Below are positions 2,739-40,487 of a DNA stretch of 40,487 bases, in pieces; within the stretch, counting starts at the first letter, position 1, and each line of letters opens with the position of its first letter. The DNA comes from Candidatus Omnitrophota bacterium. GTDB lineage: Bacteria; Omnitrophota; Gorgyraeia; Zapsychrales; Fredricksoniimonadaceae. Location of the stretch: contig JADFXW010000005.1 of assembly GCA_015233375.1 (NCBI GenBank), positions 541 through 41,027 of the forward strand, read 5' to 3'. The notes beneath the pieces are model-generated. The model saw only the letters and a program-made list of their open reading frames with translations. It was not told where the DNA came from and ran no database searches. Made by a program: the position numbers and the translations under genes.

Positions 2739-2774
2739 GAACTCCCCCTACCCCCTCTTTAAAAAAAGAGGGGG
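2739..2774. repeat. GAACTCCCCCTA hairpin repeat, copy A
   Basis: GAACTCCCCCTACCCCCTC, then TTT, a run of A and AAAGAGGGGG. It forms a CCCCCTCTTT/AAAGAGGGGG hairpin. This is one of five copies in the window (others at 3829, 13683, 15905 and, within a coding region, 36257). Confidence 0.85.
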
Positions 2775-2807
2775 CCTCTTCTTGAAATTCTTTTTGAGGC
2801 CTTTTTT
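2773..2807. terminator. Bidirectional rho-independent terminator between fdxA and the Nudix gene
   Basis: A GGCCTC...GAGGCC stem (2773-2778 / 2796-2801) is followed by TTTTTT on the plus strand. On the minus strand the stem is followed by CCCTCTTTTTTT contributed by the adjacent repeat. The two genes converge here. The rest of the intergenic gap, to 2869, shows nothing else clear. Confidence 0.6.
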
Positions 2808-8533: not shown

Positions 8534-8713
8534 GGATTGAGGGATGGCAATTATGTTTTCGGAACAATCAGGGATTTTTGGCCAAATGTTTGCGAGGATT
8601 TACAATAAATTTTTTCCAAATATACTAAGGATGCTTTAGAAAAAATTTATTGTAAACCGAAGCAAACGGCCAAAATATCCCGTTCAGAAAACATAATTGC
8701 CATCCCTCAATCC
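8534..8713. repeat. 180-bp palindrome between atpF and atpH
   Basis: The ends GGATTGAGGGATG (8534-8546) and CATCCCTCAATCC (8701-8713) are exact complements. Pairing continues inwards with mismatches through GGCAATTATGTTTTC and GGCCAAATGTTTGC to TTTACAATAAATTTTTTC (8600-8617) against GAAAAAATTTATTGTAAA (8639-8656), leaving a loop of about 21 bases. Arms are about 83 bases. The element fills most of the 224-base gap between two co-transcribed genes and has no coding potential. Confidence 0.85.
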
Positions 8714-12579: not shown

Positions 12580-12625
12580 AGACTTTATTATCTCACAGAT
12601 TTACAAGATAGCAAGTAAGTTGACG

Positions 12626-12696
12626 AACGGACCTGGAACTAAAATGGGGACAGGCCAATTTTTTTGTCCTGTCCCCATTTTAGTTCCAGGTCCGTT
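12626..12696. repeat. Perfect 29-bp inverted repeat with GGGGACAGG core
   Basis: Left arm 12626-12654 (begins AACGGACCTGGAACTAAAAT, ends GGGGACAGG) and right arm 12668-12696 are exact complements over 29 bases, with a 13-base T-rich loop. The element directly abuts the stop codon of the TPR gene (12697). On the minus strand it stands between the TPR gene and moeA and could act as a terminator or mRNA stabiliser. The GGGGACAGG core is shared with an element inside the pyruvate kinase gene at 29194-29229. Confidence 0.88.
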
Positions 12697-13611
12697 CTAG
12701 AAAAAACGAGGGTTGATAGAACGATCGTAAGGAAAACGAGGGTTATTCTGGCGATGAAGCATTAAAGAGACTTCTAGTAAATTCTGGGCCTCTTTGAGAC
12801 GCCCCATAGTTTTATAAATATTCGCCATATAGTAATAAACTTCAGGATTATTCTTCTCAATCAATAAACTTTTTTGAAAAAACTGCTCTGCCTGTGCTAA
12901 TTGCCCTTCTTCAAGAAGCCCAACCCCTAAATAAAGATATAAAGCATCTTTACAGGGCAACCCTCGGCCTAAAGCTGAATTGGCAAGAATGATCATTTTG
13001 TCATACTGTTTTAAATGATTTAAGGTTGATAATAATAAAATATAAGATTTTTCCAGGGCATTTTCCAACTGTTGGCCATAGGTATATTTAAAGTAAGGAC
13101 TTGCAGAAACCTGTCTGTAAATAATTGAAGTCTGCACTAAAAAAGCTGTTAACTTGGGATTTGCCCCAATAGCTTTAAATAAATATTGAGCGGACTCAGT
13201 CCACATGCCTTTTTTATAATAGATAACGCCTAAATTATAGTCAGGCCAAAACACATCCTGCCCGCCAAGCTGGGCAACATCTTTGTATAATTTAATGGCC
13301 CTTGCCTCATCACCCACATAATAACTGACATACCCAAGAAACTGTTTAGCAATCATATCATCTGGCACGTATTGCAAGATAAGCTCAAAATAATCCTTAT
13401 ATCCTTGCCATGACACCTTTTCATCTTTCGCCATTAAACCTTTTTCAAACAAAATTAACTGTGAAAAATCCCGGGCAGCAGAATTGAGGCGTCTTACCTT
13501 AATACGCTCATCAAGCGTCTTTAGATCTAAGCAGGTCAGACAAAAAATAAATATCACCAAGTAGATGACAGCAACCCTGCTAAAAAACCATTTAATTTGT
13601 TGGATAATCAT
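12697..13611 (-). CDS. TPR-repeat protein with an N-terminal membrane anchor
   Basis: A 304-residue protein with one N-terminal hydrophobic helix (VAVIYLVIFIFCLTCLDL, about residues 13-30) and a soluble part made of helical tetratricopeptide-like repeats. Clear units: DVFWPDYNLGVIYYKKGMW, LYLYLGVGLLEEGQLAQAEQ and EVYYYMANIYKTMGRLKEAQ. TPR arrays bind partner proteins, and none can be named. It follows the YfhO-like membrane protein in the same direction. The gene ends exactly at a perfect palindrome. No ribosome-binding site is visible at the ATG. Confidence 0.75.
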   Translation of the reverse strand: MIIQQIKWFFSRVAVIYLVIFIFCLTCLDLKTLDERIKVRRLNSAARDFSQLILFEKGLMAKDEKVSWQGYKDYFELILQYVPDDMIAKQFLGYVSYYVGDEARAIKLYKDVAQLGGQDVFWPDYNLGVIYYKKGMWTESAQYLFKAIGANPKLTAFLVQTSIIYRQVSASPYFKYTYGQQLENALEKSYILLLSTLNHLKQYDKMIILANSALGRGLPCKDALYLYLGVGLLEEGQLAQAEQFFQKSLLIEKNNPEVYYYMANIYKTMGRLKEAQNLLEVSLMLHRQNNPRFPYDRSINPRFF

Positions 13612-13750: not shown

Positions 13751-15868
13751 TTAACGATAAATTATAAAAAGGGCCACCAAACCTATTAATACCCCAAAAA
13801 ACAAAATTATTAAAGAATAATGAAAAAAATAGCGGCCAAAAGATCCAAAACGCAACACCACCTTTGATTCACCTGCGGGGACCCATAAACCCTTAAATGA
13901 ACCATTAGCCCTAAACAAATGGACTTCTTGGCCATTCACAAAAGCATGCCAATGGCTATGATAATTATCATTAATGACTAAAAACTCCTTATGAGACAAA
14001 TGCGTTTTTAAAATCCAGGTGTTTGAGTCGTGCTTCAAAACCGTCAATTCACCTAACGCCACAGGGTCAAAATCCGCGTTAAAGCTACGGGCCATATCAC
14101 CATGCATATTGTTCTGGATTCCCGCTTTCGCGGGAATGACAATATAAGAGGTATCCGCCCTTGGAACAAAGGCCAGATTAGCATGGGCTTTCATCGCATT
14201 TTGCAAATCAGTATAAAAATTGGGTGTTTCATCGTAAGGCTTCAGAATGTCATAAAAAATAAAGAGGTGTTGGCAATAACCATCAAACACCTCTGGATCA
14301 ATGTGATTAACCAGGTCCCCAAACCAATGGGAAGCATAATACAAATCAATTTTGTGTTTTCCTGTCACTTGATGAGTGTCCTCATAATGGGCAATAAATT
14401 TTTCTAATTGGAACAATTGTTTCTGTAAACTACTGTACACAGGAATTGACTGAATAAAAACAGCCAATAAAACCAACAAAAAACCAAGAAAACAGGAAAT
14501 CTTACGGTCATACAAAATCAATACTATAAAATAAATCAAACTCAATATAACAGCTAACCAATCAGTCCATAAAAGTCCTTGATGCGTTAATAAAAATAAA
14601 ACAAAAATCACATGAGCTGCAATGATAAAAAATAACCATTTTATTTTATGACCAGAAACCTCGATACACGAAAACAGGGATTTTAAAGCAGTCATGGCTA
14701 ATAATAAACCTGCGGGCAGTATTCCTAACCAAAAGAAATAATAAATGTTCCTGATAAATTTAAAACCCATGAGGTGTTCATACAAGAAGCGATGAAGACC
14801 TGAAGCTGTTGTAACCGTTACTAAAAAAAGCGCGAGAATATTAAACAACAAAAAGAAAATTAATTTGTTAACCCGTGCTGGTATAGTAACAAGTAAAATC
14901 AAGAAAAAGATAAACGGCAGGTAAATATCTCCCATGTCTAAATGAGCATGATCCGCAAAAAGTCGATCAAAGAAGCCATGGCTTATAAAATCTCCGCTTT
15001 TCACATGCTCCATGCTCACCGTCACTTCTGAAGCAGTTTTTGCCCCAGCATGCCGGTTTGGAAGAACAAATTCCCCAGCTTTCGAATCTTTATAAAAAAG
15101 AGCGCCAGGAACACATGCGGCTAATAAAAAAAACACACAAAACACGGAAAAAATTTTATTAATTTTAACAAAAGCCAGGCTGCCTTGCATAAACCCAACG
15201 AATTCTTTCCCATAAAACACCAAAACCGCCAAGATAAAAACAGTCAAAATCGTTATAAAGAAAAACGGGATATAGGTTGTGACCAACAACCCCAAGCATA
15301 AACACATCCCTAAAAAATGCCCCTTTTGAAAACGTTGAGCAAAACATAATAAAAAATAAAAAAACCAGACCACAGGAACAAAAATAATAATAATATAATT
15401 ATAAAAAATTTCCGTCGACCAAGAGGAATAAAGAAAAAGAAGATACGCTAAAAAGGCGCAAAAATGATCTTTTAAAAGAAGACGGGTTATCAAATACAAC
15501 GACCACCCTGCTAGAAAATAATAAAAACCTAGAAATATCAAATAGGCAAAAGAGCCGGGTAACCCAAACCCTTTTAAAATTAGTATTAGAATAAAAAATG
15601 GATTAACATCGCCCATCCTTCTTAAAAAGAAATCATTGGACGCCCCGTTAAACCAGGTCGGGTCCCATAATGGATAAACCCCACGACTTAAATTATCAGC
15701 ATAAAAACAAATATGGTTCGCGTAAGAGATAGCATCTTCATATAAAAGCAGGCGACCTGTAAAAAAATGCCAAAAACAAATCACCCATAAAATAAAGGGG
15801 AAAGATAAATAAAAAAATTCGTATCTGGAGGTGTGAGAGGAAAATTTATCAAGGAATGACTTAAACAT
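13751..15868 (-). CDS. YfhO-like polytopic membrane protein with in-frame repeat insertion
   Basis: A 705-residue protein with a dozen or more hydrophobic helices, then a soluble segment (about residues 490-670) and a final helix (SLIILFFGVLIGLVALFIIY). The C-terminal block NDNYHSHWHAFVNGQEVHLF, then RANGSFKGLWVPAGESKVVL, is characteristic of the YfhO family, predicted GT-C-fold membrane proteins linked to transfer of sugars from lipid carriers. The early Asp-containing loop YEDAISYANH fits the catalytic loop of that fold. Around residues 577-585 the peptide VIPAKAGIQ is encoded by a dispersed palindrome (14114-14140). Whether the product is active is unknown. Confidence 0.75.
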   Translation of the reverse strand: MFKSFLDKFSSHTSRYEFFYLSFPFILWVICFWHFFTGRLLLYEDAISYANHICFYADNLSRGVYPLWDPTWFNGASNDFFLRRMGDVNPFFILILILKGFGLPGSFAYLIFLGFYYFLAGWSLYLITRLLLKDHFCAFLAYLLFLYSSWSTEIFYNYIIIIFVPVVWFFYFLLCFAQRFQKGHFLGMCLCLGLLVTTYIPFFFITILTVFILAVLVFYGKEFVGFMQGSLAFVKINKIFSVFCVFFLLAACVPGALFYKDSKAGEFVLPNRHAGAKTASEVTVSMEHVKSGDFISHGFFDRLFADHAHLDMGDIYLPFIFFLILLVTIPARVNKLIFFLLFNILALFLVTVTTASGLHRFLYEHLMGFKFIRNIYYFFWLGILPAGLLLAMTALKSLFSCIEVSGHKIKWLFFIIAAHVIFVLFLLTHQGLLWTDWLAVILSLIYFIVLILYDRKISCFLGFLLVLLAVFIQSIPVYSSLQKQLFQLEKFIAHYEDTHQVTGKHKIDLYYASHWFGDLVNHIDPEVFDGYCQHLFIFYDILKPYDETPNFYTDLQNAMKAHANLAFVPRADTSYIVIPAKAGIQNNMHGDMARSFNADFDPVALGELTVLKHDSNTWILKTHLSHKEFLVINDNYHSHWHAFVNGQEVHLFRANGSFKGLWVPAGESKVVLRFGSFGRYFFHYSLIILFFGVLIGLVALFIIYR
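14114..14140. repeat. ATTCCCGC-TTTC-GCGGGAAT palindrome inside the YfhO-like gene
   Basis: Arms ATTCCCGC (14118-14125) and GCGGGAAT (14130-14137). This is the widely dispersed repeat that reads VIPAKAGIQ in one frame in many unrelated bacteria. Here it lies in frame within a coding region, in a loop between TSYI and NNMHGDMARSF. Confidence 0.85.
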
Positions 15869-29412: not shown

Positions 29413-32400
29413 TTAGATTACTGATAAAAACCTTCGGATGTTTTGAATACGATATATTGTATCAATAACTGGAGTAAAACCTGGATAATTTTGGTAGCGT
29501 TGGATCATGGCAGCATCAAAACCTGATTGGGCTTGGGCAGCCATTCTATTGAGGTCTATCATTCTTGGGCTCAAATCTATACCACCAGGACTGGCCATGG
29601 CAGAGCTCTTTAACTTGACGCCTAACTTTCGGCTAGGTAATCTTTTATTCCCATCTATCTTTCGACCATTCAGATCAACCCATTGACCTGTCTGAGCGTC
29701 CCGTATTAAATGACATTGCTCCTCCCATTTGCGCCTATCAACATTCCACTGTAACTGATATTTTTCTACAGAAACAAATTTACCTTTCTTAGAATCCCAT
29801 CGAAAGGCACAAGTTTTCACAATAGTGGAATCATATCTCGGATATCCATAAAAAATAACCAATGGACCCCCTTCTTGAGACCTGACAAATGCTTCTGCCC
29901 TCTGTAAACCACCACCCACTTCCATATACCCATCCTTTTGTTTCCATATTTTTGTATTATCCACATCGTTTGGTAATGGCACAATGCCTCTCATATATCC
30001 TCTGTTTAAATTACTTTTTGTCAGCCATGAGTCAAATTTAATCCAACGCCCTTTTGGGTCCTTATACCCTTCTCTGAATTCTTGAGCTATCTTTTCGCAA
30101 AGCTTCTGGTCATCTGTTATCTGATATATCAATTGTTCTTTCTGTTTATCCCAGAACCATACAGATCTCATCACTTCCTTACCTTTTCTGTATTTAACAA
30201 AAGTTATCTCCATTTGACCATTATTATTAACAATACCTATTTGGCCCTCCTGCAAGTGATCACCCGCCTTCACATACATCCTTGGCATCATTTGACCATT
30301 GGGTAAGGGGAGCCCAAGAACATCTCCTTTTTCTAAATAACTCAACGGCACGAATTTGTCTAATCTGAACCATACTTGAGTTGAGCTTTGATACGCCTCC
30401 AGCATGTCCTTTTGTATCCTTGACTTCTCTTCATCTTTTGGCTGATATACTAATTGCTTTTTAGTATTGTCCCAGAACCAGACAGATCTCATCACTTCCT
30501 TACCATCCCTGTAATTAACGAAAGTCATTTCGATTTGACCATTATTATTAACAATACCCATCACACCTTCCTGTAAATTGTCACCAGCCTTCACATATGT
30601 CCTTGGCATCATTTGACCATTTGGTAATGGTATCCCAAGAACATCTCCTTTTTTTAAATAACTCAACGGCACGCGCTCATCCAACTTAAACCATTGTTGA
30701 GTAAAACCTTTGTAAGCTCTTAAAATAGCTCTTTCAATTTGGACTTGTTTTTTATCTTTTTGATATTTAAATCGTCCTGCTCTTTTAAGCCAAAGCCATT
30801 TTGATTGAGCATGCACCTTTGATCCTTTAAATCCGATGATGGTCATTTCTATCCGTCCATTCCCATTATTATCAATAACCACTTCAACATCTTCCAAGTC
30901 ACAACCTACTTGCATAGAATTAGTGGTCTTTGTTCTATACCACAAGTTGCCATTGGGAAGCGGTGTAGCCGGTTTTATAAAGCCTTGTTTTAAGGATGAC
31001 TCTCCTATCCACTGGCCTATTCTGAATCTACAACTCCCTTTCTTAAGGTAAGCATTCCTAAATTTTGTTTCAATCTCTTGGTATTGGAATTGCCCCTGGC
31101 CTTTATTCCATAACCACTGCGATAATGACGCCCTTTCTTGACCAATCAATCCATAAACCGTCATCGTGATACGCCCATTTCCAGCATTATCAATAACCAC
31201 TTCCATATCATCTAAACCTTCTCCAACCTTCATGTCCCGACTTGTTTCTTCTTTCGTCCATAATGAGCCATCAGGCAAAGGCATATCTGGCATACATCCT
31301 TTTAATAAAGAAACAGGGGAAACCCTGTCTTTGACTCTAAAAGTCCTCAACCCCACTTCTCTATAAGCTGTTTTAAATTCATCCTCAAGTGACATGGGCG
31401 TTTCTTTTTCTATAACTGTTATCTTATCAGCCTGCTGCTTATGAACAAATCTCTCAATGTTATTATCCCACCGATAAGCGCAACTATGAAATCCACCATC
31501 AAGAAAACCTAAAAAAACAATTATGGGAACACCGCCTAAATCCGTAACAATAGCTCTTGAGGGTATAAAAACATTTCCCACATCACTATAGAGTTCTTTG
31601 ATTTGCAGGGAGGTTTTATTAGGTAATGGGATTAAAATTTCTAAATCAGCTTCTACTAAATCAATAGATACTCCAGCCGCGGTTTGATATCCATTTTCAA
31701 ATAACTCGCTGATCGTTTTTATTCGCTGTTCCTTAACAGCCTCCTTTTTATCTTGGCTTGAAACAACGTCACTTTGCCCATCTTTTTCTTCAGTCGATAA
31801 GACTTCTGGCCTCGCTTGTTCCTCTTGTTCTTCAAGACCACCGCTGCGTATCTCAGGAACCTCATTTTTAATATTTTCTGATGTACCCGCCTCTTTCTGA
31901 TTTGGTGGATTCACAGGCGCATCTTGTTGTGGACTTCTTTTCTGACGTTGTTTTTCTGAATTTTTATGTTTTACACATTTAATTTGAAAATTTCCATAAT
32001 AGGTAACCTCACCGCCTCCTTTAAACTTCACGCGATAGCCTTGCCCCAAATCAGGATAATCAGGATTTTGTTCAATCACTTCAATAATCTTCCCATAACG
32101 TTGTCCAATTAAAACCTCATCTCCAGCTTCCAATTCATCATCATCACTAAATTTAACAAACCCTGGGACTGCCGTTTCTATGCTTCTCTGTGAAGATTTA
32201 AGCCTTCTCGCCTTTTTACCCTTTTTAGTCCTACCTCTCTCTAAAGTCTTGTCTGCCAAAACAACTTCTTTCTGTCTTTCAGGTATTTTGACCTGACTCT
32301 GTGCTTTCTTATCAGGCATTGGAACATGAGGGACTTGAATGTCTATATCTGGAATGGGCCTGCTATCTATCCCTTCAATAGAGAGAAGATCAAATTTTCC

Positions 32401-34308
32401 TTTTATGGGGTTCCATAACCATTGACTTTGTCCTGTTTGATGTCCATTCTTAACCCCAACAATAGTTCTTTCTATATGATGGGGATTTCTTAAAACCTCT
32501 AATAATGCCTTGAACACCTGCTTATCTTTAACAATTTCTTCAATCTTATCTTCATCAATTAATCCGGGATCAACAAAAACCTGTCCTCCAACCCTGACCA
32601 TATAACCTTGAGATATTAATTGCTCAAAAACCATAATTCCTGCAGAACGACCCTGCAAAGATCTCAAGGCATCAAAAATATCACTTGTTTCAACAACACC
32701 AGACCCTCCTATCGTATGTTCAATAATCACGTGGGCGTTCGTTAACCCTTGGCCTACCTCCATATATTCTTGACTCAAAAGTTTCCTCCCATTAGGTAAC
32801 AAACAACCAGGTTTTAAATACCCTGCCATTAAAAGATCTTTTTCAAGCCATTCGGTTAATTCTATTTTAGCAGTTCCAGGAACTGTATAGGCCAGCCTCA
32901 ACGCATTTCTTATACTTATATCTACGTTTCTTTTTATCTTATTTCTTTCTTCTTGATGTAATACTTCTTCTTGGGGTATTTCATTAGTCTCTGAAGAATC
33001 TATAGGGACTTTTATAATACCACTTCTTCTCGAACGATAAGTCATCACCACTCCATTTCTCTCAACCTCATATACCGCTAAACCAGCGAGTGGCCCTTCC
33101 TTCTCAGAAGGCAGCTCTGACTTAATCTTCCATGGCGTCCCCTGGATTAAAATCAAATCCCCAGGATTTATCGTTTGATATTGGGGACCTTGACTCTCTT
33201 GTGCTGGTGAAACCAATCTTACCTTCATGCCAAAACTTTCTTTTTCAGGCACGGCCATGGCTCCATCTTCCCTATCCAGTGTTATTTTCTCAAAACCTGA
33301 AATCCCGCCTGAAAAATATTTTCTGGGAATACGAAGACCGTTGGTTTTGTTGATATCCTCCTTGATGTAATTAAAAACACCCTTCTGATAGGCCTTAATA
33401 TAACGCTCATAAATTTGTTCCTTTATTGTCTTATCTTCAATATCAACGCCTTTTATCTTGCCCTTACCCACATAAACCTTGGCCAATAAAGTCTTTGTAA
33501 TAACATCCCTGTACCATTTTGCTAAAATGGCGGCATAATAAATTTGACGTAAATGAGAAAAATTCTTGCCCTCGTTAACCTCATGTTCGATGGCCGGTAA
33601 GATGATTTGACGAATAAGTTGGGAAGTAGAATGGTGAATATTGTTTTTGTGATGAGAAAACGCCAAATAATCCTCTTCAAGCATCACCTTCAATCGAGCT
33701 TCAGTCACATAAACAGCATGGCCTTTTTCATAAATTTTTGCTTGAGCAGGCACGATCCAAACCTTGTTAAAACAATTAAGCGGGATATCATGGGTACCAA
33801 AACGCTTTGAGGCTTCTTCATAAATCTTGTCCCAAAATTCCTTACCCAAAGCTTTTTCTGGATAAATAAGAGAGGCTGTCAATTGCTTAAGCAGATAATC
33901 CTGGGCTAACATGTCTCGTCCCAGATCCGTATTACCTAATTCATTGGGGATGACCCTGTTATGCTCATAGGGCGATAAATTGACCCATAAATCTGATGCT
34001 TTGACAGTCAGAGCAGCTAAGAAGTACCTCACCATGCGCCGGCCTTCTTCTTTTATTGTGCTTTGATACACTCGAGTGCTGCCTGAATCTAATATGAAAT
34101 CAAAATCAAATGGTTTGTCAGGGAAGGTTATCATCCCCTTTAACAGCACAGGGACAAAATCAGAAGATAGATAAACCTGACTGCCTACAGATGGCAAGGC
34201 GTTTAGAAATAGATTTTGAGCAAAGGCCTGTCTTGGACTAAGAAGCAAGGAACCGCTTAATAGGACACACAGAATCTTTCGAGCTAAAGATTTTATATGA
34301 TATTTCAT
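29413..34308 (-). CDS. Giant exported protein: shared N-terminal module, 107-aa repeats and GGIDL tail
   Basis: A 1631-residue protein of no family I can name. Residues 1-31 look like a signal peptide ending SPRQAFAQ. Residues 32-338 are the module shared with the next two genes (DLWVNLSPYEHNRVIP, LGRDMLAQDYLLKQLTASLI, FNKVWIVP, GVFNYIKED, RKYFSGG). A small SH3-like segment near 380-430 (GDLILIQGTPWKI) and another near 725-780 (AGDEVLIGQRYGKII) follow, then a charged low-complexity linker (about 780-860). Six repeats of 107-113 residues fill about 865-1545, each with LPNG/LPDG, a VGxxL block and SxWxWD; a related unit lies near 500. The tail has SPGGIDL. It has its own promoter. Confidence 0.75.
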   Translation of the reverse strand: MKYHIKSLARKILCVLLSGSLLLSPRQAFAQNLFLNALPSVGSQVYLSSDFVPVLLKGMITFPDKPFDFDFILDSGSTRVYQSTIKEEGRRMVRYFLAALTVKASDLWVNLSPYEHNRVIPNELGNTDLGRDMLAQDYLLKQLTASLIYPEKALGKEFWDKIYEEASKRFGTHDIPLNCFNKVWIVPAQAKIYEKGHAVYVTEARLKVMLEEDYLAFSHHKNNIHHSTSQLIRQIILPAIEHEVNEGKNFSHLRQIYYAAILAKWYRDVITKTLLAKVYVGKGKIKGVDIEDKTIKEQIYERYIKAYQKGVFNYIKEDINKTNGLRIPRKYFSGGISGFEKITLDREDGAMAVPEKESFGMKVRLVSPAQESQGPQYQTINPGDLILIQGTPWKIKSELPSEKEGPLAGLAVYEVERNGVVMTYRSRRSGIIKVPIDSSETNEIPQEEVLHQEERNKIKRNVDISIRNALRLAYTVPGTAKIELTEWLEKDLLMAGYLKPGCLLPNGRKLLSQEYMEVGQGLTNAHVIIEHTIGGSGVVETSDIFDALRSLQGRSAGIMVFEQLISQGYMVRVGGQVFVDPGLIDEDKIEEIVKDKQVFKALLEVLRNPHHIERTIVGVKNGHQTGQSQWLWNPIKGKFDLLSIEGIDSRPIPDIDIQVPHVPMPDKKAQSQVKIPERQKEVVLADKTLERGRTKKGKKARRLKSSQRSIETAVPGFVKFSDDDELEAGDEVLIGQRYGKIIEVIEQNPDYPDLGQGYRVKFKGGGEVTYYGNFQIKCVKHKNSEKQRQKRSPQQDAPVNPPNQKEAGTSENIKNEVPEIRSGGLEEQEEQARPEVLSTEEKDGQSDVVSSQDKKEAVKEQRIKTISELFENGYQTAAGVSIDLVEADLEILIPLPNKTSLQIKELYSDVGNVFIPSRAIVTDLGGVPIIVFLGFLDGGFHSCAYRWDNNIERFVHKQQADKITVIEKETPMSLEDEFKTAYREVGLRTFRVKDRVSPVSLLKGCMPDMPLPDGSLWTKEETSRDMKVGEGLDDMEVVIDNAGNGRITMTVYGLIGQERASLSQWLWNKGQGQFQYQEIETKFRNAYLKKGSCRFRIGQWIGESSLKQGFIKPATPLPNGNLWYRTKTTNSMQVGCDLEDVEVVIDNNGNGRIEMTIIGFKGSKVHAQSKWLWLKRAGRFKYQKDKKQVQIERAILRAYKGFTQQWFKLDERVPLSYLKKGDVLGIPLPNGQMMPRTYVKAGDNLQEGVMGIVNNNGQIEMTFVNYRDGKEVMRSVWFWDNTKKQLVYQPKDEEKSRIQKDMLEAYQSSTQVWFRLDKFVPLSYLEKGDVLGLPLPNGQMMPRMYVKAGDHLQEGQIGIVNNNGQMEITFVKYRKGKEVMRSVWFWDKQKEQLIYQITDDQKLCEKIAQEFREGYKDPKGRWIKFDSWLTKSNLNRGYMRGIVPLPNDVDNTKIWKQKDGYMEVGGGLQRAEAFVRSQEGGPLVIFYGYPRYDSTIVKTCAFRWDSKKGKFVSVEKYQLQWNVDRRKWEEQCHLIRDAQTGQWVDLNGRKIDGNKRLPSRKLGVKLKSSAMASPGGIDLSPRMIDLNRMAAQAQSGFDAAMIQRYQNYPGFTPVIDTIYRIQNIRRFLSVI
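29930..31700 (-). repeat. Tandem repeat array within the giant gene (about 321-bp units)
   Basis: Six consecutive units. In nucleotide sequence the two units around 30120-30440 and 30440-30760 are very similar, with blocks such as CAGATCTCATCACTTCCTTA at 30162 and 30483 exactly 321 bases apart. Outer units are more diverged. Each unit encodes about 107 residues. Confidence 0.8.
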
Positions 34309-34335
34309 CGTATTTATTATTTTAAATCAGAATAA

Positions 34336-34375
34336 AGATGAGGAATTATACAACATATTAATATTTTGTATATAT
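34336..34375 (-). promoter_or_regulatory. Promoter of the giant gene, shared 40-bp element (copy 2)
   Basis: ATATAC (34373-34368), a 17-base spacer and TATAAT (34350-34345) on the minus strand. The block is 35/40 identical to the tRNA-cluster promoter at 24779-24818. The start point would be near 34338, about 30 bases before the ATG at 34308. No clear ribosome-binding site is present. It overlaps the stop of the 864-aa paralogue. Confidence 0.65.
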
Positions 34376-36969
34376 TAATTTGTCTTATAATCAAACACAG
34401 AAACACCAAAAGTGGATGATATATCAAGAAGGCCAATATGGAGGATAATAGGCACGATTTTTTTCACGCCTTGACGCTTCATCTTCATCAATAAAGCTTT
34501 ATTAACGGAAACATGAATTTGATTATGCTGGTCTCTCTGGACTGAAAGGACCGCATCTTCTGACTTTAAGTCAATACCACCTTCTGGATTAGGCTGCCTG
34601 TCTGCTGCTTCGCTTCGCAGATAAGATGAGCCTAAAAGAAACCCATATACCTCATCCATATGATACCTATCGCCTTGATCTAAATAAAAATCTAAAGAAT
34701 GGGAAGACTTTATCAGGTCTATCACATTTATCAAAAGAGCCTTTTGCCTTTCATACTCTCTTATCTGATGATGTGCTGTTTGATACCTGATACGCTCTTC
34801 TAAACCTGTCCCAAAATTCTTATAAAGATTATAAAGAACATCCGCAAAGGATACCGACACAAAATCGCCTGACTTAAAATGAGTTAGATAATCACCCGTT
34901 TTATATTGACTATAATAATAACTGTAAACGTAAGCCATCCAATAATGCCGTACAATTGGGTCAATCGGCCTTCTTACCCACTGCTCAAACGTGTTAAAAT
35001 ATTTCCTAAAGGCAATAACAGCATTCACTCTTTCTTCAATATAATCCCTTTGATAGTAGAATGACCCTTCTCGCAGGTGTCTTGCTAAACCCCAATGTCC
35101 AGGAACATATCTATGGCGTTGATATTTCCCTAGATACCTTTCAAAAACCTTCTCATTTGATCCAAAATCATCTGGAAGAAGGTCTAAATATTCCATAATA
35201 ATATAGGCCGCTTCATCGATATATACAGGCTGTTTACTGGTTTCTTGAATAAGTTGTATCAAAGGGACAACTTCATCAACCATGGGCACTCGGCGCTGAC
35301 CTTTGCCTAAAGAATCCCTGGAAACACCTGCCTTGGTTTTTTGATTGAAATTAAAATGTTCCATGAGAGCTGTTAAAACCCTTGAGTTTCTTATCTTATT
35401 TTCTTGATTGTCTGGATCTGCGGCAATAGCAATCCCTTCAAGATCTGATATCAAACCTGATAAAGACGTCTGGTCAAAAGCTGAAATCCGCTGCAACGCA
35501 TTTTGAGCAGCCCTGATTTTCTCTAATGACTCAAAAATCCCAGAAGGGTCTAACGCCAGATAGGCAGATTGGTATTTGGATAATATAGGCTGCAATATAC
35601 TGCCCCTCTTTCTTGTTAACCGAGAAATTTTGAGGGCAATTTCGTATTCCTTTTGTTGAAAATCTCTTCTAAGACGCCTGATTTCCTCTACAATAGCTGC
35701 CTTTTTTTGGTGAATTTGTTCGCTCCATTGAATGATTTCCGGCTCAAGAGGGGTTAAGACAAGCCTTTCATAAGGCCTCTCTTTTTCTTTGACCATTTGA
35801 GGCGATGCCTGAATCTCTTCTGCGACCATACCAGGATTGGCAAAAACCTTAACAGCTAAACAACCGTCTAATTGAGGGATAACGGATGCTAACTGCGCAT
35901 TGCTTCTTAATAAAAATTCTTTCATTCCCCCATCATACCCGCCAGAAAAATATTGATGCGCTACCGGCACTTGAGTCTTTGGGTCAAACTCATCTTTGAT
36001 AAAATTAAAAACACCTTTTTGGTAGGCTTTTAAATATTGGTTATAAATAGCTTCATTGGTGGCCTTATCATTCTGATCAATCCCTTTCACCGTACTTTTA
36101 TTGGCATAGACCTGATTAAGTAAGGCTTGCTTTAAATGACGCTTAAACCAGACCGCTAATACCTGTGCATAAAAAATCTGGCGTAAGGTGGAAAAATTCT
36201 TGCCTTCATTGACTTCTTTTTCGATTTCAGGAAGAATAATTTGACGGATAATATTTGAACTCCCCCTAGCCCCCTCTTTCAAAAAAAGAGGGGGGATATT
36301 ATTGGTTTTAATGTCTTCTTGTTTAGCCAATGCAAGATAATCCTCTTCTAACATCACCTTCAAATGCCCACTGACGATAAACCCTGTTTGACCATGTTCA
36401 TACACACTTGCCTTTTGAGGGACTATCCATACTTTATTAAAGGTATTTACTGGTATTTGTGTTGACCCATATAATTCTTGAGCTTGTTTATAAATTTTGG
36501 CCCAAAATGTTTTTCCTAAAGAATTTTCAGGATACATCAAGGATGCAGTCAACTGCTTGAGCAAATAATCTTGGGCTAACAAGTCCCTGCCCATGACTGT
36601 TTGGCCCAGCGCTGTTGGTATAATCCTGTCTTTTTCATAGGGGCTTAAATTGACCCAAATATCCTTATCAGGCAGGGTTAAGGAAGCAAAAAAGTATCTG
36701 ACCATCCGTAACGCTTCCCTTTTCAATTCTTCCTTTGATGTCTTTGATTCACCAGGTGAAACAATAAAATCAAATAAAAAGGGATTGTTTTCATTAATGA
36801 TCACCCCTTTCATTAATGCAGGTTGAAACAAAGGACTTGCAGAAACCATGGTCCCTGCAACAGGTAAATCAGCAATAGACATAGCCATGCTCATAGAGCC
36901 CCCCGGCCCTGGCATAACCATGATTGATAAAATAACAAAATAAGTGAATATTCTTTTGAGTTTATTCAT
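34375..36969 (-). CDS. Exported paralogue with shared N-terminal module, helical middle and GGIDL tail
   Basis: An 864-residue paralogue of the neighbouring giant proteins. The signal-peptide-like start is MNKLKRIFTYFVILSIMVMP, followed by SMSMAMS. The shared module runs to about residue 345 (DIWVNLSPYEKDRIIP, MGRDLLAQDYLLKQLTASLM, FNKVWIVP, GVFNFIKDE, HQYFSGG). The middle is mostly helical, with a coiled coil near 415-465 (IVEEIRRLRRDFQQKEYEI); the segment after 560 is Tyr-rich and unfamiliar. The tail begins GGIDL near residue 798. At about 226-238 the sequence PPLFLKEGARGSS is encoded by a dispersed hairpin repeat. It starts nine bases after the preceding gene. Confidence 0.75.
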   Translation of the reverse strand: MNKLKRIFTYFVILSIMVMPGPGGSMSMAMSIADLPVAGTMVSASPLFQPALMKGVIINENNPFLFDFIVSPGESKTSKEELKREALRMVRYFFASLTLPDKDIWVNLSPYEKDRIIPTALGQTVMGRDLLAQDYLLKQLTASLMYPENSLGKTFWAKIYKQAQELYGSTQIPVNTFNKVWIVPQKASVYEHGQTGFIVSGHLKVMLEEDYLALAKQEDIKTNNIPPLFLKEGARGSSNIIRQIILPEIEKEVNEGKNFSTLRQIFYAQVLAVWFKRHLKQALLNQVYANKSTVKGIDQNDKATNEAIYNQYLKAYQKGVFNFIKDEFDPKTQVPVAHQYFSGGYDGGMKEFLLRSNAQLASVIPQLDGCLAVKVFANPGMVAEEIQASPQMVKEKERPYERLVLTPLEPEIIQWSEQIHQKKAAIVEEIRRLRRDFQQKEYEIALKISRLTRKRGSILQPILSKYQSAYLALDPSGIFESLEKIRAAQNALQRISAFDQTSLSGLISDLEGIAIAADPDNQENKIRNSRVLTALMEHFNFNQKTKAGVSRDSLGKGQRRVPMVDEVVPLIQLIQETSKQPVYIDEAAYIIMEYLDLLPDDFGSNEKVFERYLGKYQRHRYVPGHWGLARHLREGSFYYQRDYIEERVNAVIAFRKYFNTFEQWVRRPIDPIVRHYWMAYVYSYYYSQYKTGDYLTHFKSGDFVSVSFADVLYNLYKNFGTGLEERIRYQTAHHQIREYERQKALLINVIDLIKSSHSLDFYLDQGDRYHMDEVYGFLLGSSYLRSEAADRQPNPEGGIDLKSEDAVLSVQRDQHNQIHVSVNKALLMKMKRQGVKKIVPIILHIGLLDISSTFGVSVFDYKTN
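36257..36295. repeat. GAACTCCCCCTA hairpin repeat, copy E, inside a coding region
   Basis: GAACTCCCCCTAGCCCCCTC followed by TTTC, an A-run and AGAGGGGG: the same element as copies A-D. It is read in the antisense orientation to give PPLFLKEGARGSS. It interrupts a loop of the shared module that varies between paralogues. Confidence 0.9.
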
Positions 36970-36978
36970 AATTGAGCT

Positions 36979-37977
36979 TTAACTTGTTTGCAGTCCTAAA
37001 ATTGGCAGAATGCTTAAAAGAGGTATAATACGAATAATATTCGCTACTACACCTGAAAATTTTCCACGTTGAAATTCAGCAATCATCGCAGGGTTAAATT
37101 TTATTTTAACACCTTGACCAACCCTCTCAATATCCAGCCCCGCCTTCTTAACCTTAAGGTCAATACCGCCAGGCACAAAATTCTCTTCTAAATGCCGAGC
37201 CTTTCCTATGTCACTTATATTCATGGCAAAATCTTGGGACCATTCAAGCTCAATTTTCAACTGATTCTTATCGAAACCTGCTAACCGAATAACATCATCT
37301 TCATCCATCATCAGAAGCCTCTTTACCACGTTCATTTCTTTTTCACCCGTATCTTCGCCTGTTTCTTGACTTAAAAGGACTTCTTTAGCCTTATTAAAGA
37401 CGGGTTTAATACGTTTGGAAACATCGACAATCTCATCCACCTTGGGGAATAAAACAGATCCAGATTTATCCCGATAACCATTTAACCGTGCCACATATTG
37501 CTGTTGAATAGACAAATCCCCTGGATTCATGACTTTTTCCATAAGCCGTTCGGTTGCATTGATAACAAAATCATCAAAATCTTCTATCCTCAATTGTTGA
37601 ATCTTCAAAAGACCGTCATCACCAAAAACAAAGTTTACAAATTCCTCCATCCCTTCAAAAGATTCAACCAGGCGTTTATCCTTATACATTAACTTATAAG
37701 CCAAAACAAAATCTTCGACATACCCCAACATTTTATCCGCATTAAAGAATAATCTTGCTTCTGGTGATTGAATTTCATCAAATGTCTTTAAAAGAAGATG
37801 ATTAATATCCCTGGAAATATCATGATCAATAGCCAAGTTATTCTGATTGTATACAATTTCCTGGGCTGCTGCCTGATTATACCGTGTCACCACACGTGAT
37901 CCAACCTGCATCTGGGCTGCGATTACGGGATTGGCTGAAAAATATTCACCTATCCCGGCCTTCCACAAAATGAACAA
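36979..37977 (-). CDS. 3' part of a frameshifted radical SAM/HD paralogue, with GGIDL tail
   Basis: An open frame of about 332 codons without a credible start: the first codon would be a TTG, with a stop just before it and no ribosome-binding site. It overlaps the end of the preceding frame by 32 bases. Its beginning (KAGIGEYFSANPVIAAQ) continues an HD motif cut off in that frame. It is mostly helical, with a D/E-rich middle, and ends with VPGGIDLKVKKAGLDIERVG and IIRIIPLLSIL, like the tails of the two other paralogues. I read it as the C-terminal third of one gene, not an independent protein. Confidence 0.7.
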   Translation of the reverse strand: MFILWKAGIGEYFSANPVIAAQMQVGSRVVTRYNQAAAQEIVYNQNNLAIDHDISRDINHLLLKTFDEIQSPEARLFFNADKMLGYVEDFVLAYKLMYKDKRLVESFEGMEEFVNFVFGDDGLLKIQQLRIEDFDDFVINATERLMEKVMNPGDLSIQQQYVARLNGYRDKSGSVLFPKVDEIVDVSKRIKPVFNKAKEVLLSQETGEDTGEKEMNVVKRLLMMDEDDVIRLAGFDKNQLKIELEWSQDFAMNISDIGKARHLEENFVPGGIDLKVKKAGLDIERVGQGVKIKFNPAMIAEFQRGKFSGVVANIIRIIPLLSILPILGLQTS

Positions 37978-40288
37978 ACGGGAGCCTGCCTAACTCATGA
38001 GCTAAAGCTACCGTGACGAGTTTATCTTGATCCATTTGTAATTTCATTTTCTGTGTATATAGTTGGGCAGAAGCCAAGCCACGCAGGACATGCCTTTGTC
38101 TATTCGTCAATGTTTTTGTCGAATCCTCTTTAACATGTACAAATGTTGGAAAACAGCCGCCGATATTCTTAAGCCTTACCCACCCCGAGGATGAACGAAT
38201 TTTCTCTGCTAATCCGGCGCTTGTCATAGAGGCACTGACCTCTTGTTTCTGACTAAGAAGCTCAGTTCTTCCTAAATGCAACAGTTTAGAAGTTATATTG
38301 TTTCTTATTTTAGCCAGTTGCGGTGATCCTTGAAGTCTCTCAAGAGCATCGTGGTCTAATATATTCCCAAAGCTTATATTGTTCCCGTACACCGATGCCT
38401 CCAGTACACCTTTCGAATCAAGATATAAATACGATTGATCATAGGAGGGAGTATCGTATGCTATTGTAAAATCGTTATCAAATTGTCTTCGTATAGCCTG
38501 ACACGCTTCAAAGTATGTTTCATAATCAATAAAATATGGATCCTTTTCTTCCGCATATAATTTAGCTGTTTTTCCTATTCTTTTATACCTGCTTATTTTC
38601 CAACGAAAATTCTGGAGACCTTGTCTTTGTTGCTCCATTAATTGACCGATTTTAGGAAGGTCTGCCAAATTTTTTGCCGAAGCCACGGTCAAAATTTGGG
38701 TCTTTAGATGAGGAAAATGTTGCTTAATCAATCCGATTGTACGCAAACCTGCTTCAAAAGTTCCCTGACGTCCACTGACTTGATCATTTTCAATATTATA
38801 ACCATTGATTGAAACAGAAAGAAAATCAATATTGGGTATAAGATCTAAAAATTTCCTCTCATTTAATAAAACGCTGTTTGTATAAAATAAAATCCGTAAT
38901 CCCTTTTCTTTGGCATATTTTACAAGATCTACTATATGAGAAACCATCAAGGGTTCTCCTCCAGTAATCGTTAAGGAGACAACCCCATTAGCCTGCATCA
39001 TATCAACCATTCTTTTATGTTCTTCAAGAGTCCCTTCCTGATCTGCCGCAAAATTGTCCTTCCAACATATAGAACAATCACGATTACATCTTTTTGTAAC
39101 CAAAAATTCCATTACCGGCGGCAATATCATTGCCGCATTAGACTTGCTTACAAACGTTTCAACGACAGCCATGGCCCCATTCACTGTTATTTGGTCTCCT
39201 GGAGTTGGCTTCTGTTCTGCTTCCAGGATACCAGAAGTCTTCATGGCTAATCCACCTGAGAAATATTTGCGTGAAATGAACTGTTTACTACCCTCATCCA
39301 TCTCTTCCTTAATATAATTAAAAACCCCCTTTTTGTACGCTTTTAAATACTCTTCATAAATTTTTTCCTTGACCCCAATATCATCAGATAAAACGCCACC
39401 GATTTTGGCTTTATTGCTATAAACCTGATTAAGCAAAGCATCTTTCAAAGCCAGCTTATACCATGAAGCCAAAATCATTGAATAAAACATCTGCCGCAAG
39501 GGTGCAAAATTCCGTCCTTGATTGACCTCTTTTTCAAGTTCAGGAATGATGATTTCGCGGATGATGTGACTGCCTATTTGATTGGTAGAGACGCCATAAA
39601 TAGCATCTCTGCGATGATAAAAATTGCCTTGATATTTTTTAAGAGAAAGATAATCCTCATCAAGCATCACCTTTAATTTTGCGCCAACCACATACACGGC
39701 GTTGTTATGTTCCAAAACCTTGGCCTTTTCTGCCACAATCCATACCTTGTTAAAAGTACTCACCAAAATTTCAGATGTGCCATATTTTGCCTGGGCCTTT
39801 GCATAAACCCTATTCCAAAACTCTTGGCCTAAATGTTTCTCAGGATAAATGAGGGACGCGGTTAATTGCTTTAAGATGTAGTCTTGGGCTAACATATCAC
39901 GCCCCAATCCTGTTTTTCCTAACTCGGTTGGAATCATCCTGTTTTTTTCATAAGGAGATAAATTAACCCATAAATCATCTTCTTTGATGGTCAATGAGGC
40001 CAAGAAATATTTAATAAGTTTTTCGGATTCAACCTTAAATTCATGCCTGTTCACTTTTAGACCGGAATTGCCCGTGTCTAGAATGAAATCAAATAGAAAT
40101 GGATTTTCAGAATGAACTTTCAAGCCTTTAATCAAAACTGGCTCGAAGGCAGGGCTTAAATTTACCATGGTCCCTGCAACAGGTAAATCAGCAATAGACA
40201 TAGCCATGCTCATAGAGCACACCGGCCCTGGCATAGCCATGATTGATAAAATAACAAAATAAATGAATATTTTTTTGAGTTTATTCAT
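37946..40288 (-). CDS. Paralogue with shared N-terminal module and radical SAM domain, truncated in an HD motif
   Basis: A 780-residue frame. The signal-peptide-like start MNKLKKIFIYFVILSIMAMP is almost identical to that of the 864-aa paralogue; the ATG at 40288 is chosen for that match over an upstream codon at 40393. The shared module occupies about 30-350 (DLWVNLSPYEKNRMIP, LGRDMLAQDYILKQLTASLI, RKYFSGG). A radical SAM domain follows, with CNRDCSIC (Cys401, Cys405, Cys408), TITGGEPLM and FLSVSINGYN. Near residue 764 a dGTPase-like HD motif begins (LAHELGRLPFVHFVE), then the frame stops. The rest is in the next frame (36979-37977). Confidence 0.75.
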   Translation of the reverse strand: MNKLKKIFIYFVILSIMAMPGPVCSMSMAMSIADLPVAGTMVNLSPAFEPVLIKGLKVHSENPFLFDFILDTGNSGLKVNRHEFKVESEKLIKYFLASLTIKEDDLWVNLSPYEKNRMIPTELGKTGLGRDMLAQDYILKQLTASLIYPEKHLGQEFWNRVYAKAQAKYGTSEILVSTFNKVWIVAEKAKVLEHNNAVYVVGAKLKVMLDEDYLSLKKYQGNFYHRRDAIYGVSTNQIGSHIIREIIIPELEKEVNQGRNFAPLRQMFYSMILASWYKLALKDALLNQVYSNKAKIGGVLSDDIGVKEKIYEEYLKAYKKGVFNYIKEEMDEGSKQFISRKYFSGGLAMKTSGILEAEQKPTPGDQITVNGAMAVVETFVSKSNAAMILPPVMEFLVTKRCNRDCSICWKDNFAADQEGTLEEHKRMVDMMQANGVVSLTITGGEPLMVSHIVDLVKYAKEKGLRILFYTNSVLLNERKFLDLIPNIDFLSVSINGYNIENDQVSGRQGTFEAGLRTIGLIKQHFPHLKTQILTVASAKNLADLPKIGQLMEQQRQGLQNFRWKISRYKRIGKTAKLYAEEKDPYFIDYETYFEACQAIRRQFDNDFTIAYDTPSYDQSYLYLDSKGVLEASVYGNNISFGNILDHDALERLQGSPQLAKIRNNITSKLLHLGRTELLSQKQEVSASMTSAGLAEKIRSSSGWVRLKNIGGCFPTFVHVKEDSTKTLTNRQRHVLRGLASAQLYTQKMKLQMDQDKLVTVALAHELGRLPFVHFVEGRDR
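37955..37962 (-). other. Probable one-base frameshift site
   Basis: On the minus strand the sequence reads GTG GAA GGC CGG GAT AGG TGA in the upstream frame. Dropping one G from GGCC gives GTG GAA GCC GGG ATA GGT GAA, which joins HFVE to AGIGEYFSANP without a stop. No slippery heptamer is apparent, so mutation or an assembly error is likelier than programmed shifting. Confidence 0.6.
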
Positions 40289-40323
40289 AAATAAATTTTG
40301 ATAATAAATATATAGACAGTGAG

Positions 40324-40352
40324 AGTATACCCGGTATGCAAGAAATAAGCAA
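40324..40352 (-). promoter_or_regulatory. Promoter of the paralogue operon
   Basis: TTGCTT (40352-40347), a 17-base spacer and TATACT (40329-40324) on the minus strand, about 36 bases before the ATG at 40288. It would drive the radical SAM/HD gene and, nine bases after it, the 864-aa gene. From 40353 to the window end I see no gene or clear element. Confidence 0.6.
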
Positions 40353-40487
40353 ATTTGTTTATTTTTGAAAATTTTTTCTGGGGAAAATTTCATGCAACTG
40401 TATTTTTAAAAAATAAGAAAAAAGAGGAAATCAAATATGGTGGGATGATAGGAAATGTTCTAGAAACTGCTTGGTACCTTCTAATAA

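What the first reader, a model, noticed from the sequence alone, without database searches (positions are those of the whole stretch)
36257..36295. Dispersed hairpin repeat inserted in frame in a protein gene (PPLFLKEGARGSS)
Four intergenic copies of the GAACTCCCCCTA hairpin occur in this window (2739, 3829, 13683, 15905). A fifth sits inside the 864-aa paralogue and is translated as PPLFLKEGARGSS. The two sister paralogues lack it at the equivalent loop, so it is a recent insertion that kept the frame and adds a peptide to the product. This parallels Rickettsia palindromic elements, but the family is different.
Basis: partly seen in the sequence, partly recalled or inferred. Interest (0 to 1): 0.75.

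Follow-up and report, generated by a model that had tools for sequence, protein, structure and literature searches.

The report
Palindromic repeats inserted inside bacterial proteins
A short hairpin repeat scattered through this uncultured bacterium's genome has landed inside a protein gene without breaking it, and several unrelated repeats of this sort have landed again and again in the same three loops of the same large protein family.

Summary
The element at 36257-36298 is one of 82 sites of a hairpin repeat in this genome and is read in frame in the 864-aa protein. Paralogues and the closest relatives (66-69% identity) lack that peptide. The genome belongs to the genus of MAGs named Candidatus Omnitrophota. 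Of 12 sites deep inside genes, 11 are in this one paralogue family and one in LpxK; none of five neighbouring gene pairs tested was a broken gene. In other genomes it also sits in frame in KdtA, PurL, Lnt, TrxB and a histidine kinase. The larger finding: three loops of the protein family are recurrent landing sites for at least six sequence-unrelated dispersed repeats, including CGTC-1-type REPs (VIPAKAGIQ). In three close G004 sister genes loop 1 holds three different repeats, and one pair shows a clean 21-nt insertion. In-frame REPs were already known (Rickettsia RPEs; Di Nocera 2013). What looks new is the repeated multi-family targeting of the same loops. I infer non-autonomous REP-like elements, filtered by selection to insertion-tolerant loops. 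The mobilising enzyme is unknown; adaptive loop diversification is not excluded.

The parts
36257..36298 (+). Type A palindromic element inside the 864-aa gene; read from the - strand as (N)IPPLFLKEGARGSS
34375..36969 (-). 864-aa host protein P0001 of a hugely expanded paralogue family; no Pfam match; hydrophobic N terminus that looks like a signal peptide (by eye)
36253..36321 (-). Loop 2 of the host domain (between the LKVMLEEDYLAL helix and the IIRQIILPE helix), the site of the insert
   Evidence: model residue + 24 = protein residue
36733..36759 (-). Loop 1 (after FDFIV), empty here but occupied by repeats in 13 of 73 family rows
36064..36105 (-). Loop 3 (NKSTVKGIDQND), empty here but occupied in 6 of 73 family rows
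37946..40393 (-). Paralogue P0002 (815 aa, radical SAM C-terminal part), no element at loop 2
29413..34308 (-). Paralogue P0003 (1631 aa), no element at loop 2
2739..2778 (+). Intergenic type A copy, A-rich loop
3829..3876 (+). Intergenic type A copy, CGCTTCG loop
13683..13730 (+). Intergenic type A copy, CGCTTCG loop
15905..15944 (+). Intergenic type A copy, A-rich loop
14117..14140 (-). A second, unrelated repeat (type B, VIPAKAGIQ, CGTC-1-like) in frame inside the window's 705-aa ORF 13751-15868

Best explanation
The feature is a copy of a small non-autonomous palindromic repeat of the REP/RPE kind: a hairpin of about 23-31 nt with a 13-nt 5' tail GAACTCCCCCTAA, often found with a second, inverted copy as a two-hairpin composite. 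It inserted antisense into a coding loop. It is read through because four of its six frames lack a stop and the frame downstream is kept. It persists because the loop lies between helices and tolerates extra residues. The same process has placed several unrelated repeat families in the same three loops of this protein family, and in loops or ends of core enzymes. Shown: dispersal, in-frame reading, position, recurrence and patchiness on the gene tree. Inferred: mobility of the element, translation of the peptide, and neutral tolerance rather than function. Not identified: the mobilising enzyme.
For: Dispersal: 30 exact 12-mers in the genome against 0 for the reversed control; 105 model matches, 93 kept, 82 sites. 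In-frame reading: all 11 family copies keep long open frames; LpxK carries one at residues 234-247 inside Pfam LpxK 23-364. Elsewhere: KdtA (14 residues absent from 2xci at the insert), histidine kinase HATPase domain, TrxB (about 30 extra residues), PurL and Lnt. Recurrence: types A, B, C, D, F and G are each dispersed in their own genomes and each sits in one or more of loops 1-3. Patchiness: at least 12, 23 and 6 changes of state at loops 1, 2 and 3 on a tree built without those columns. Clean insertion: L231 against L232, 21 nt; loop 1 of three G004 sisters holds B, C and A. AlphaFold puts all three loops between secondary-structure elements, with low confidence at the insert.
Against: No near-identical empty site was found for type A itself; the clean empty site is for type C. 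No Y1 transposase locus examined is flanked by complete A, B or C repeats, and G014 (26 copies, 69% complete) and G005 have no Y1 match. In the family the frame of type B is uniform (14 of 14) against 4 of 24 elsewhere in the same genome, which pure neutral tolerance does not predict. The five type A composites in the genome may partly reflect gene duplication or conversion. Expression was not tested.
Confidence: 0.75

Rival explanations
1. Adaptive diversification: the family is exported, its three loops face other cells or the medium, and REP palindromes are retained or recruited there as a source of new exposed peptides.
For: 14 of 73 examined type B copies in G005 fall in family N-terminal domains against about 2 expected at a generous 3% share; uniform frame in the family; six dispersed repeat families at homologous loops; one G005 gene has repeats in all three loops.
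Against: In-frame repeats also sit in MutS, PriA, UvrD, PurL, LpxK and KdtA, where diversification makes little sense. Loop tolerance alone predicts a similar concentration. Export is judged only by eye from the N terminus. No dN/dS or expression test was made.
Confidence: 0.2
2. Few insertions, many duplications: one or a few ancestral inserts were spread among paralogues by gene duplication and gene conversion.
For: Five own-genome members share a similar two-hairpin composite, and three share the loop 1 insert; the L125/L136 pair is supported as sisters.
Against: Minimum changes of 12, 23 and 6 at the three loops; close sisters differ in repeat type or in having one; unrelated repeat types at the same site cannot descend from one insertion. 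The tree is a quick one with 31 of 70 branches weak.
Confidence: 0.15
3. Functional RNA or DNA hairpin (terminator, mRNA stabiliser, protein-binding site) kept for its regulatory effect, also inside the gene.
For: Most copies lie in short gaps between genes, commonly close to a gene end, as described for REPs (PMC3733652, section 15).
Against: In the protein family the copies sit in loops rather than near gene ends; no T-run follows the stem, so it is not a standard intrinsic terminator (sequence). No RNA-family search was run.
Confidence: 0.1
4. Chance similarity or an assembly artefact: low-complexity C/G and A/T runs, or mis-joined MAG contigs.
For: The genome is a fragmented MAG, 64% complete.
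Against: 0.13 expected against 5 observed; reversed-pattern controls are 0; the same arrangement is seen in several MAGs.
Confidence: 0.02

Closest known systems
Rickettsia palindromic elements (RPE-1 and others), Ogata 2000 (seen only through passages of PMC2229807 and PMC3733652)
   Same: Dispersed palindromes found between genes and in frame inside conserved protein genes; hairpin-forming.
   Different: RPEs there are 105-146 bp; this element is 39-50 nt, up to about 90 nt as a composite. Sequence kinship was not tested. Different phylum. Concentrated in one paralogue family.
CGTC-tagged REPs, including R. conorii RPE-4/RPE-6 and Neisseria dRS3 (Di Nocera 2013, PMC3733652; abstract, sections 6, 13, 15 and passages read)
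   Same: Type B here (TGTC + ATTCCCGC stem, 4-nt loop, tail CCA) fits the CGTC-1 description; intragenic copies that add amino acids are described there, and UvrD-type helicase is among both sets of hosts.
   Different: The window's own element (type A) has no CGTC or GTAG tag. The paper reports different REPs at about the same site only in recB of two Xanthomonas species, not several repeat families at three loops of one paralogue family.
REPs with RAYT transposases (GTAG REPs, REPINs)
   Same: Short palindromes, often as inverted pairs, mostly extragenic.
   Different: No GTAG in 93 matches; no Y1 transposase gene seen flanked by the element.
Protein-coding palindromes of an archaeon (Suyama 2005) and Wolbachia (Ogata 2005), known here from citations in PMC2229807 only
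   Same: Palindromic repeats read inside proteins.
   Different: Not compared by sequence here.

Membership tests
Rickettsia palindromic elements | Dispersed palindrome found both between genes and in frame within protein genes | tested here: met
   82 sites, 12 deep inside genes and all in frame
Rickettsia palindromic elements | Length 105-146 bp with terminal inverted repeats | tested here: not met
   39-50 nt single copies, about 90 nt as composites
Rickettsia palindromic elements | Sequence kinship with an RPE family | not tested
   No RPE sequence was fetched
GTAG REPs | Unpaired GTAG tag at one end | tested here: not met
   0 of 93 matches contain GTAG
GTAG REPs | Cognate RAYT gene flanked by the repeat | tested here: not met
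   15 Y1_Tnp loci in 12 genomes, none with the hairpin core in the flanks held; three have the 9-mer AACTCCCCC alone; genomes incomplete
CGTC REPs (window element, type A) | CGTC/TGTC tag and stem beginning with AT | tested here: not met
   1 of 93 contains CGTC; the stem begins CCCCCTC
CGTC REPs (type B repeat of the same loops) | TGTC tag, 8-bp stem beginning AT, 4-nt loop, CCA tail | tested here: met
   TGTC ATTCCCGC GAAA GCGGGAAT CCA against section 6 of PMC3733652
MITE | Terminal inverted repeats and target-site duplication | tested here: inconclusive
   G025 and G052 copies and own-genome composites have complementary ends; no near-identical empty site for type A

The most novel reading that the evidence does not exclude
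A family of exported proteins in Omnitrophota diversifies three exposed loops by capturing whatever REP-type palindromes are active in each genome: unrelated repeats enter the same loops, replace one another between sister genes, are held in one strand and frame, and so act as natural peptide cassettes. For CGTC repeats of types C and E the Arg-His codons CGT CAT of loop 2 may themselves supply the target tag, which would fix site, strand and frame.
Probability: 0.22. Interest if true: 0.85.

Novelty: new variant of a known kind. Interest (0 to 1): 0.62.

Why it matters
Whether palindromic repeats inside proteins are tolerated junk or raw material for new protein parts has been open since Rickettsia (recalled). 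A family with 18 matches in one genome, three defined loops, at least six repeat types and close sister genes with and without inserts makes the question testable by comparison, expression and biochemistry, in a phylum for which the listings searched here showed no such report.

Tried and rejected
A RAYT origin for the element was sought and not found: two of the Y1 genes looked at have their own inverted repeats (GGTGACACACGACGTAACC in L031, GGGGACACG in L310).

A domain name for the host family was sought: no Pfam match for P0001 and no PDB fold match at E <= 0.001, so its function stays unknown.

Type E (SEGVRSTTEESKGVLRSFANAQDD) was first taken for a dispersed repeat. A strict pattern found only the copy itself in eight genomes, so it is not counted among the shown types. 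Type H (GGGGACATGTTC...GAACGTGTC, loop 2 of L127 and L140) was not searched for dispersal.

A first alignment mixed strands and was discarded; model building failed on structure length and was done. One DNA scan showed a 22-mer of the element in 36 stretches, 22 titled Omnitrophota and 14 from other groups. I read 20 of these 36 (the other 16 were already held from relatives): Ignavibacteria L208 is the one clear in-frame gene case outside Omnitrophota; short ORFs at L212 and L217 were taken as doubtful.

I at first named the G025 host in L177 FlgD-like and the L162 host a glycosyltransferase from fragments (notes). Pfam and PDB show thioredoxin reductase for L177; L162 has no Pfam match.

Full report
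Observation. GAACTCCCCCTA is present five times in the window where 0.13 are expected, always followed by a hairpin CCCCCTCTTT-loop-AAAGAGGGGG with an A-rich or CGCTTCG loop. Four copies lie between genes; the fifth lies in the 864-aa ORF 34375-36969 (-) and is read as (N)IPPLFLKEGARGSS, residues 224-238. The genome (1.76 Mb, 64% complete, 209 contigs) has 30 exact 12-mers against 0 for the reversed control.

Genome-wide tally. A covariance model from 24 copies (6 of the 30 aligned copies were left out because of a one-base shift) gave 105 matches at E <= 0.01. Only 150 of 1363 first-look candidates were scored, so this is a lower bound. I dropped 12 weak matches lying on the other strand of, or inside, stronger ones, and kept 93, which form 82 sites. 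Fifteen sites lie at least 30 nt inside an ORF of 100 aa or more. I set aside three as doubtful: C72 and C146 (ORFs of 100-105 aa) and C148 (N-terminal extension). Of the 12 left, 11 are in paralogues of the window's protein and one is in LpxK, inside the Pfam domain. Five of these genes hold a two-hairpin composite read as QLPLTPSLTKEGERNMIPPLFHKEGVRGSS and the like. To look for broken genes I tested five pairs of same-strand ORFs flanking intergenic copies: all ten have their own Pfam domains and none of the pairs looks like two halves of one gene. This is 5 of the 67 other sites, so broken genes are not excluded elsewhere. Ten ORFs that mostly overlap or abut a copy were scanned too: eight carry whole or nearly whole domains, the T2SSE ORF in L139 matched profile positions 134-257 of 370, and one ORF had no family.

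Whose genome. The window is in the same genus as these.

Other genomes. The model hit 8 of 55 relatives at E <= 1e-4: own 89, G014 26, G052 11, G025 7, G004 2, G005 2, G001 1, G027 1. I read 42 of the 50 non-own matches; the 8 left out were opposite-strand duplicates. Both G004 copies sit in the same paralogue family at another loop. G014 has in-frame copies in KdtA, PurL, Lnt, at the MurB and UbiA N termini, in two prepilin-like genes and in two long ORFs without Pfam match; G025 has them in a histidine kinase and TrxB. PDB alignments place extra residues at or around the insert in KdtA, the kinase and TrxB. For LpxK, PurL and MurB the PDB alignments shown do not span the insert, and for Lnt only the second of the two shown does. 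The N-terminal cases may be start-codon misreadings.

The loops. The host family is hugely expanded: 52 of 55 relatives match P0001. Aligned domains show inserts concentrated at three loops, with scattered extra sites (the L125 insert at columns 326-361 of the first alignment, short tails). Other members carry other repeats there: type B GTCATTCCCGCGAAAGCGGGAATC (VIPAKAGI), type C GTCATTCTGAGCGCAGCGAAGAATC (SERSEES), type D (GDEAIS), type F (GLEPAPTG), type G GGGGACAGG...CCTGTCCCC. The scan also hit half-motifs of 8-11 bases elsewhere in some domains; these I did not count. Each type is dispersed in its own genome, with reversed controls at 0: B 79 in G005, 27 in G004, 22 in G001, 21 in own; C 7 in G004; D 70 in G001, 15 in G005, 13 in own; F 5 in G027; G 17 matches per strand, 16 sites, in own, 5 of them inside family genes by coordinates. 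Types E and H are not shown to be dispersed.

Sampling. Of 73 aligned rows, repeats were scored by hand in 13 at loop 1, 24 at loop 2 (E once and H twice included) and 6 at loop 3. Many rows were fetched because they hold repeats. Among the 46 rows fetched by similarity to P0001 alone (L186-L189, L226-L264), 9 carry one (L186, L187, L188, L231, L232, L233, L236-3137, L237-7542, L264), type E in L236 included.

Independence. On a quick tree without the loop columns (31 of 70 branches weak), the fewest changes of state are 12, 23 and 6. Close sisters in G004 show the case directly: at loop 1, L231 has B, L232 has C and L150+6127 has A; at loop 2, L231 has a 21-nt (seven-codon) C insert where L232 has none. 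In G005, L235 and L236-3137 are very close on the kept columns (branches 0.023 and 0.004), yet differ wholly at loop 2. The clade of the window's gene (100% support) has A, B, D, a B-like remnant or nothing at loop 2.

G005 type B. I examined 73 of 79 copies: 40 lie in an ORF of 100 aa or more, 33 do not; 14 are in the family's N-terminal domain, 2 in what looks like its C-terminal part (by eye), 24 elsewhere. At a generous 3% share, 2.2 family copies are expected; at least 14 has P = 3e-8, and at 5% P = 1e-5. These assume independence, which paralogy weakens. All 14 read VIPAKAGI; elsewhere 4 of 24 do (Fisher 3e-7, same caveat). Other hosts are MutS, PriA, UvrD, PurL and type III pantothenate kinase, in several frames.

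Structure. AlphaFold on 61 sequences (mean pLDDT 76.3) puts loops 1, 2 and 3 between secondary-structure elements, with low confidence at the insert. No PDB fold matched at E <= 0.001.

Comparison with the known. I read the abstract, sections 6, 13 and 15 and passages of PMC3733652: it describes GTAG and CGTC REPs, copies inside genes, and one case of different REPs at about the same site (recB). [quoted passage not shown] The window's element has neither tag (0 of 93 with GTAG, 1 of 93 with CGTC), so I do not file it in either superfamily, nor as an RPE. It works like an RPE. A term search of PMC10066038 on Omnitrophota found no 'repeat' or 'palindrom' in its text. Paper searches showed none on such repeats in this phylum; only listings were seen, and the library lacks most subscription journals.

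Mechanism. REP-like mobility through single-stranded hairpins is inferred from anatomy and from recalled REP biology; no enzyme was tied to it. Selection then leaves the inserts that keep frame and fold. The uniform frame in the family is the result that fits this least, and is why adaptive use stays open.

Noticed in passing
window 14117-14140 (-), ORF 13751-15868 (-): A second repeat family (CGTC-1-like, VIPAKAGIQ) is in frame inside a 705-aa ORF with no Pfam match, so this one window holds two unrelated in-frame palindromes.
   Followed up: partly
window 12625-12697: Intergenic 34-nt inverted repeat containing GGGGACAGG...CCTGTCCCC, a dispersed type G palindrome with 16 sites in this genome, 5 of them inside family genes.
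   Followed up: partly
L268, L280, L282, L276 (G005): Type B repeats in frame in MutS, PriA, UvrD and PurL; DNA repair and replication hosts were also stressed for REPs in PMC3733652.
   Followed up: partly
L164:2630-3442 and L156:43-2454 (G014): Two prepilin-like genes carry the type A peptide just before the GFTLVEVL/GLTLTELL cleavage motif (motif recalled), so the peptide might be removed on processing (N_methyl Pfam match only in the first).
   Followed up: no
L031:1342-2640 (G000:C168): Y1 transposase gene flanked by inverted repeats GGTGACACACGACGTAACC and an array of GAATTCTGGTGA units.
   Followed up: no
window 8534-8713 and 699-832: Two long inverted repeats (32 and 31 nt arms, 97% complementary, 116 and 72 nt apart).
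   Followed up: no
window 29413-40393: The shared N-terminal domain is fused to different C-terminal parts (radical SAM in P0002); P0001 has no Pfam match and its domain no PDB fold match.
   Followed up: partly
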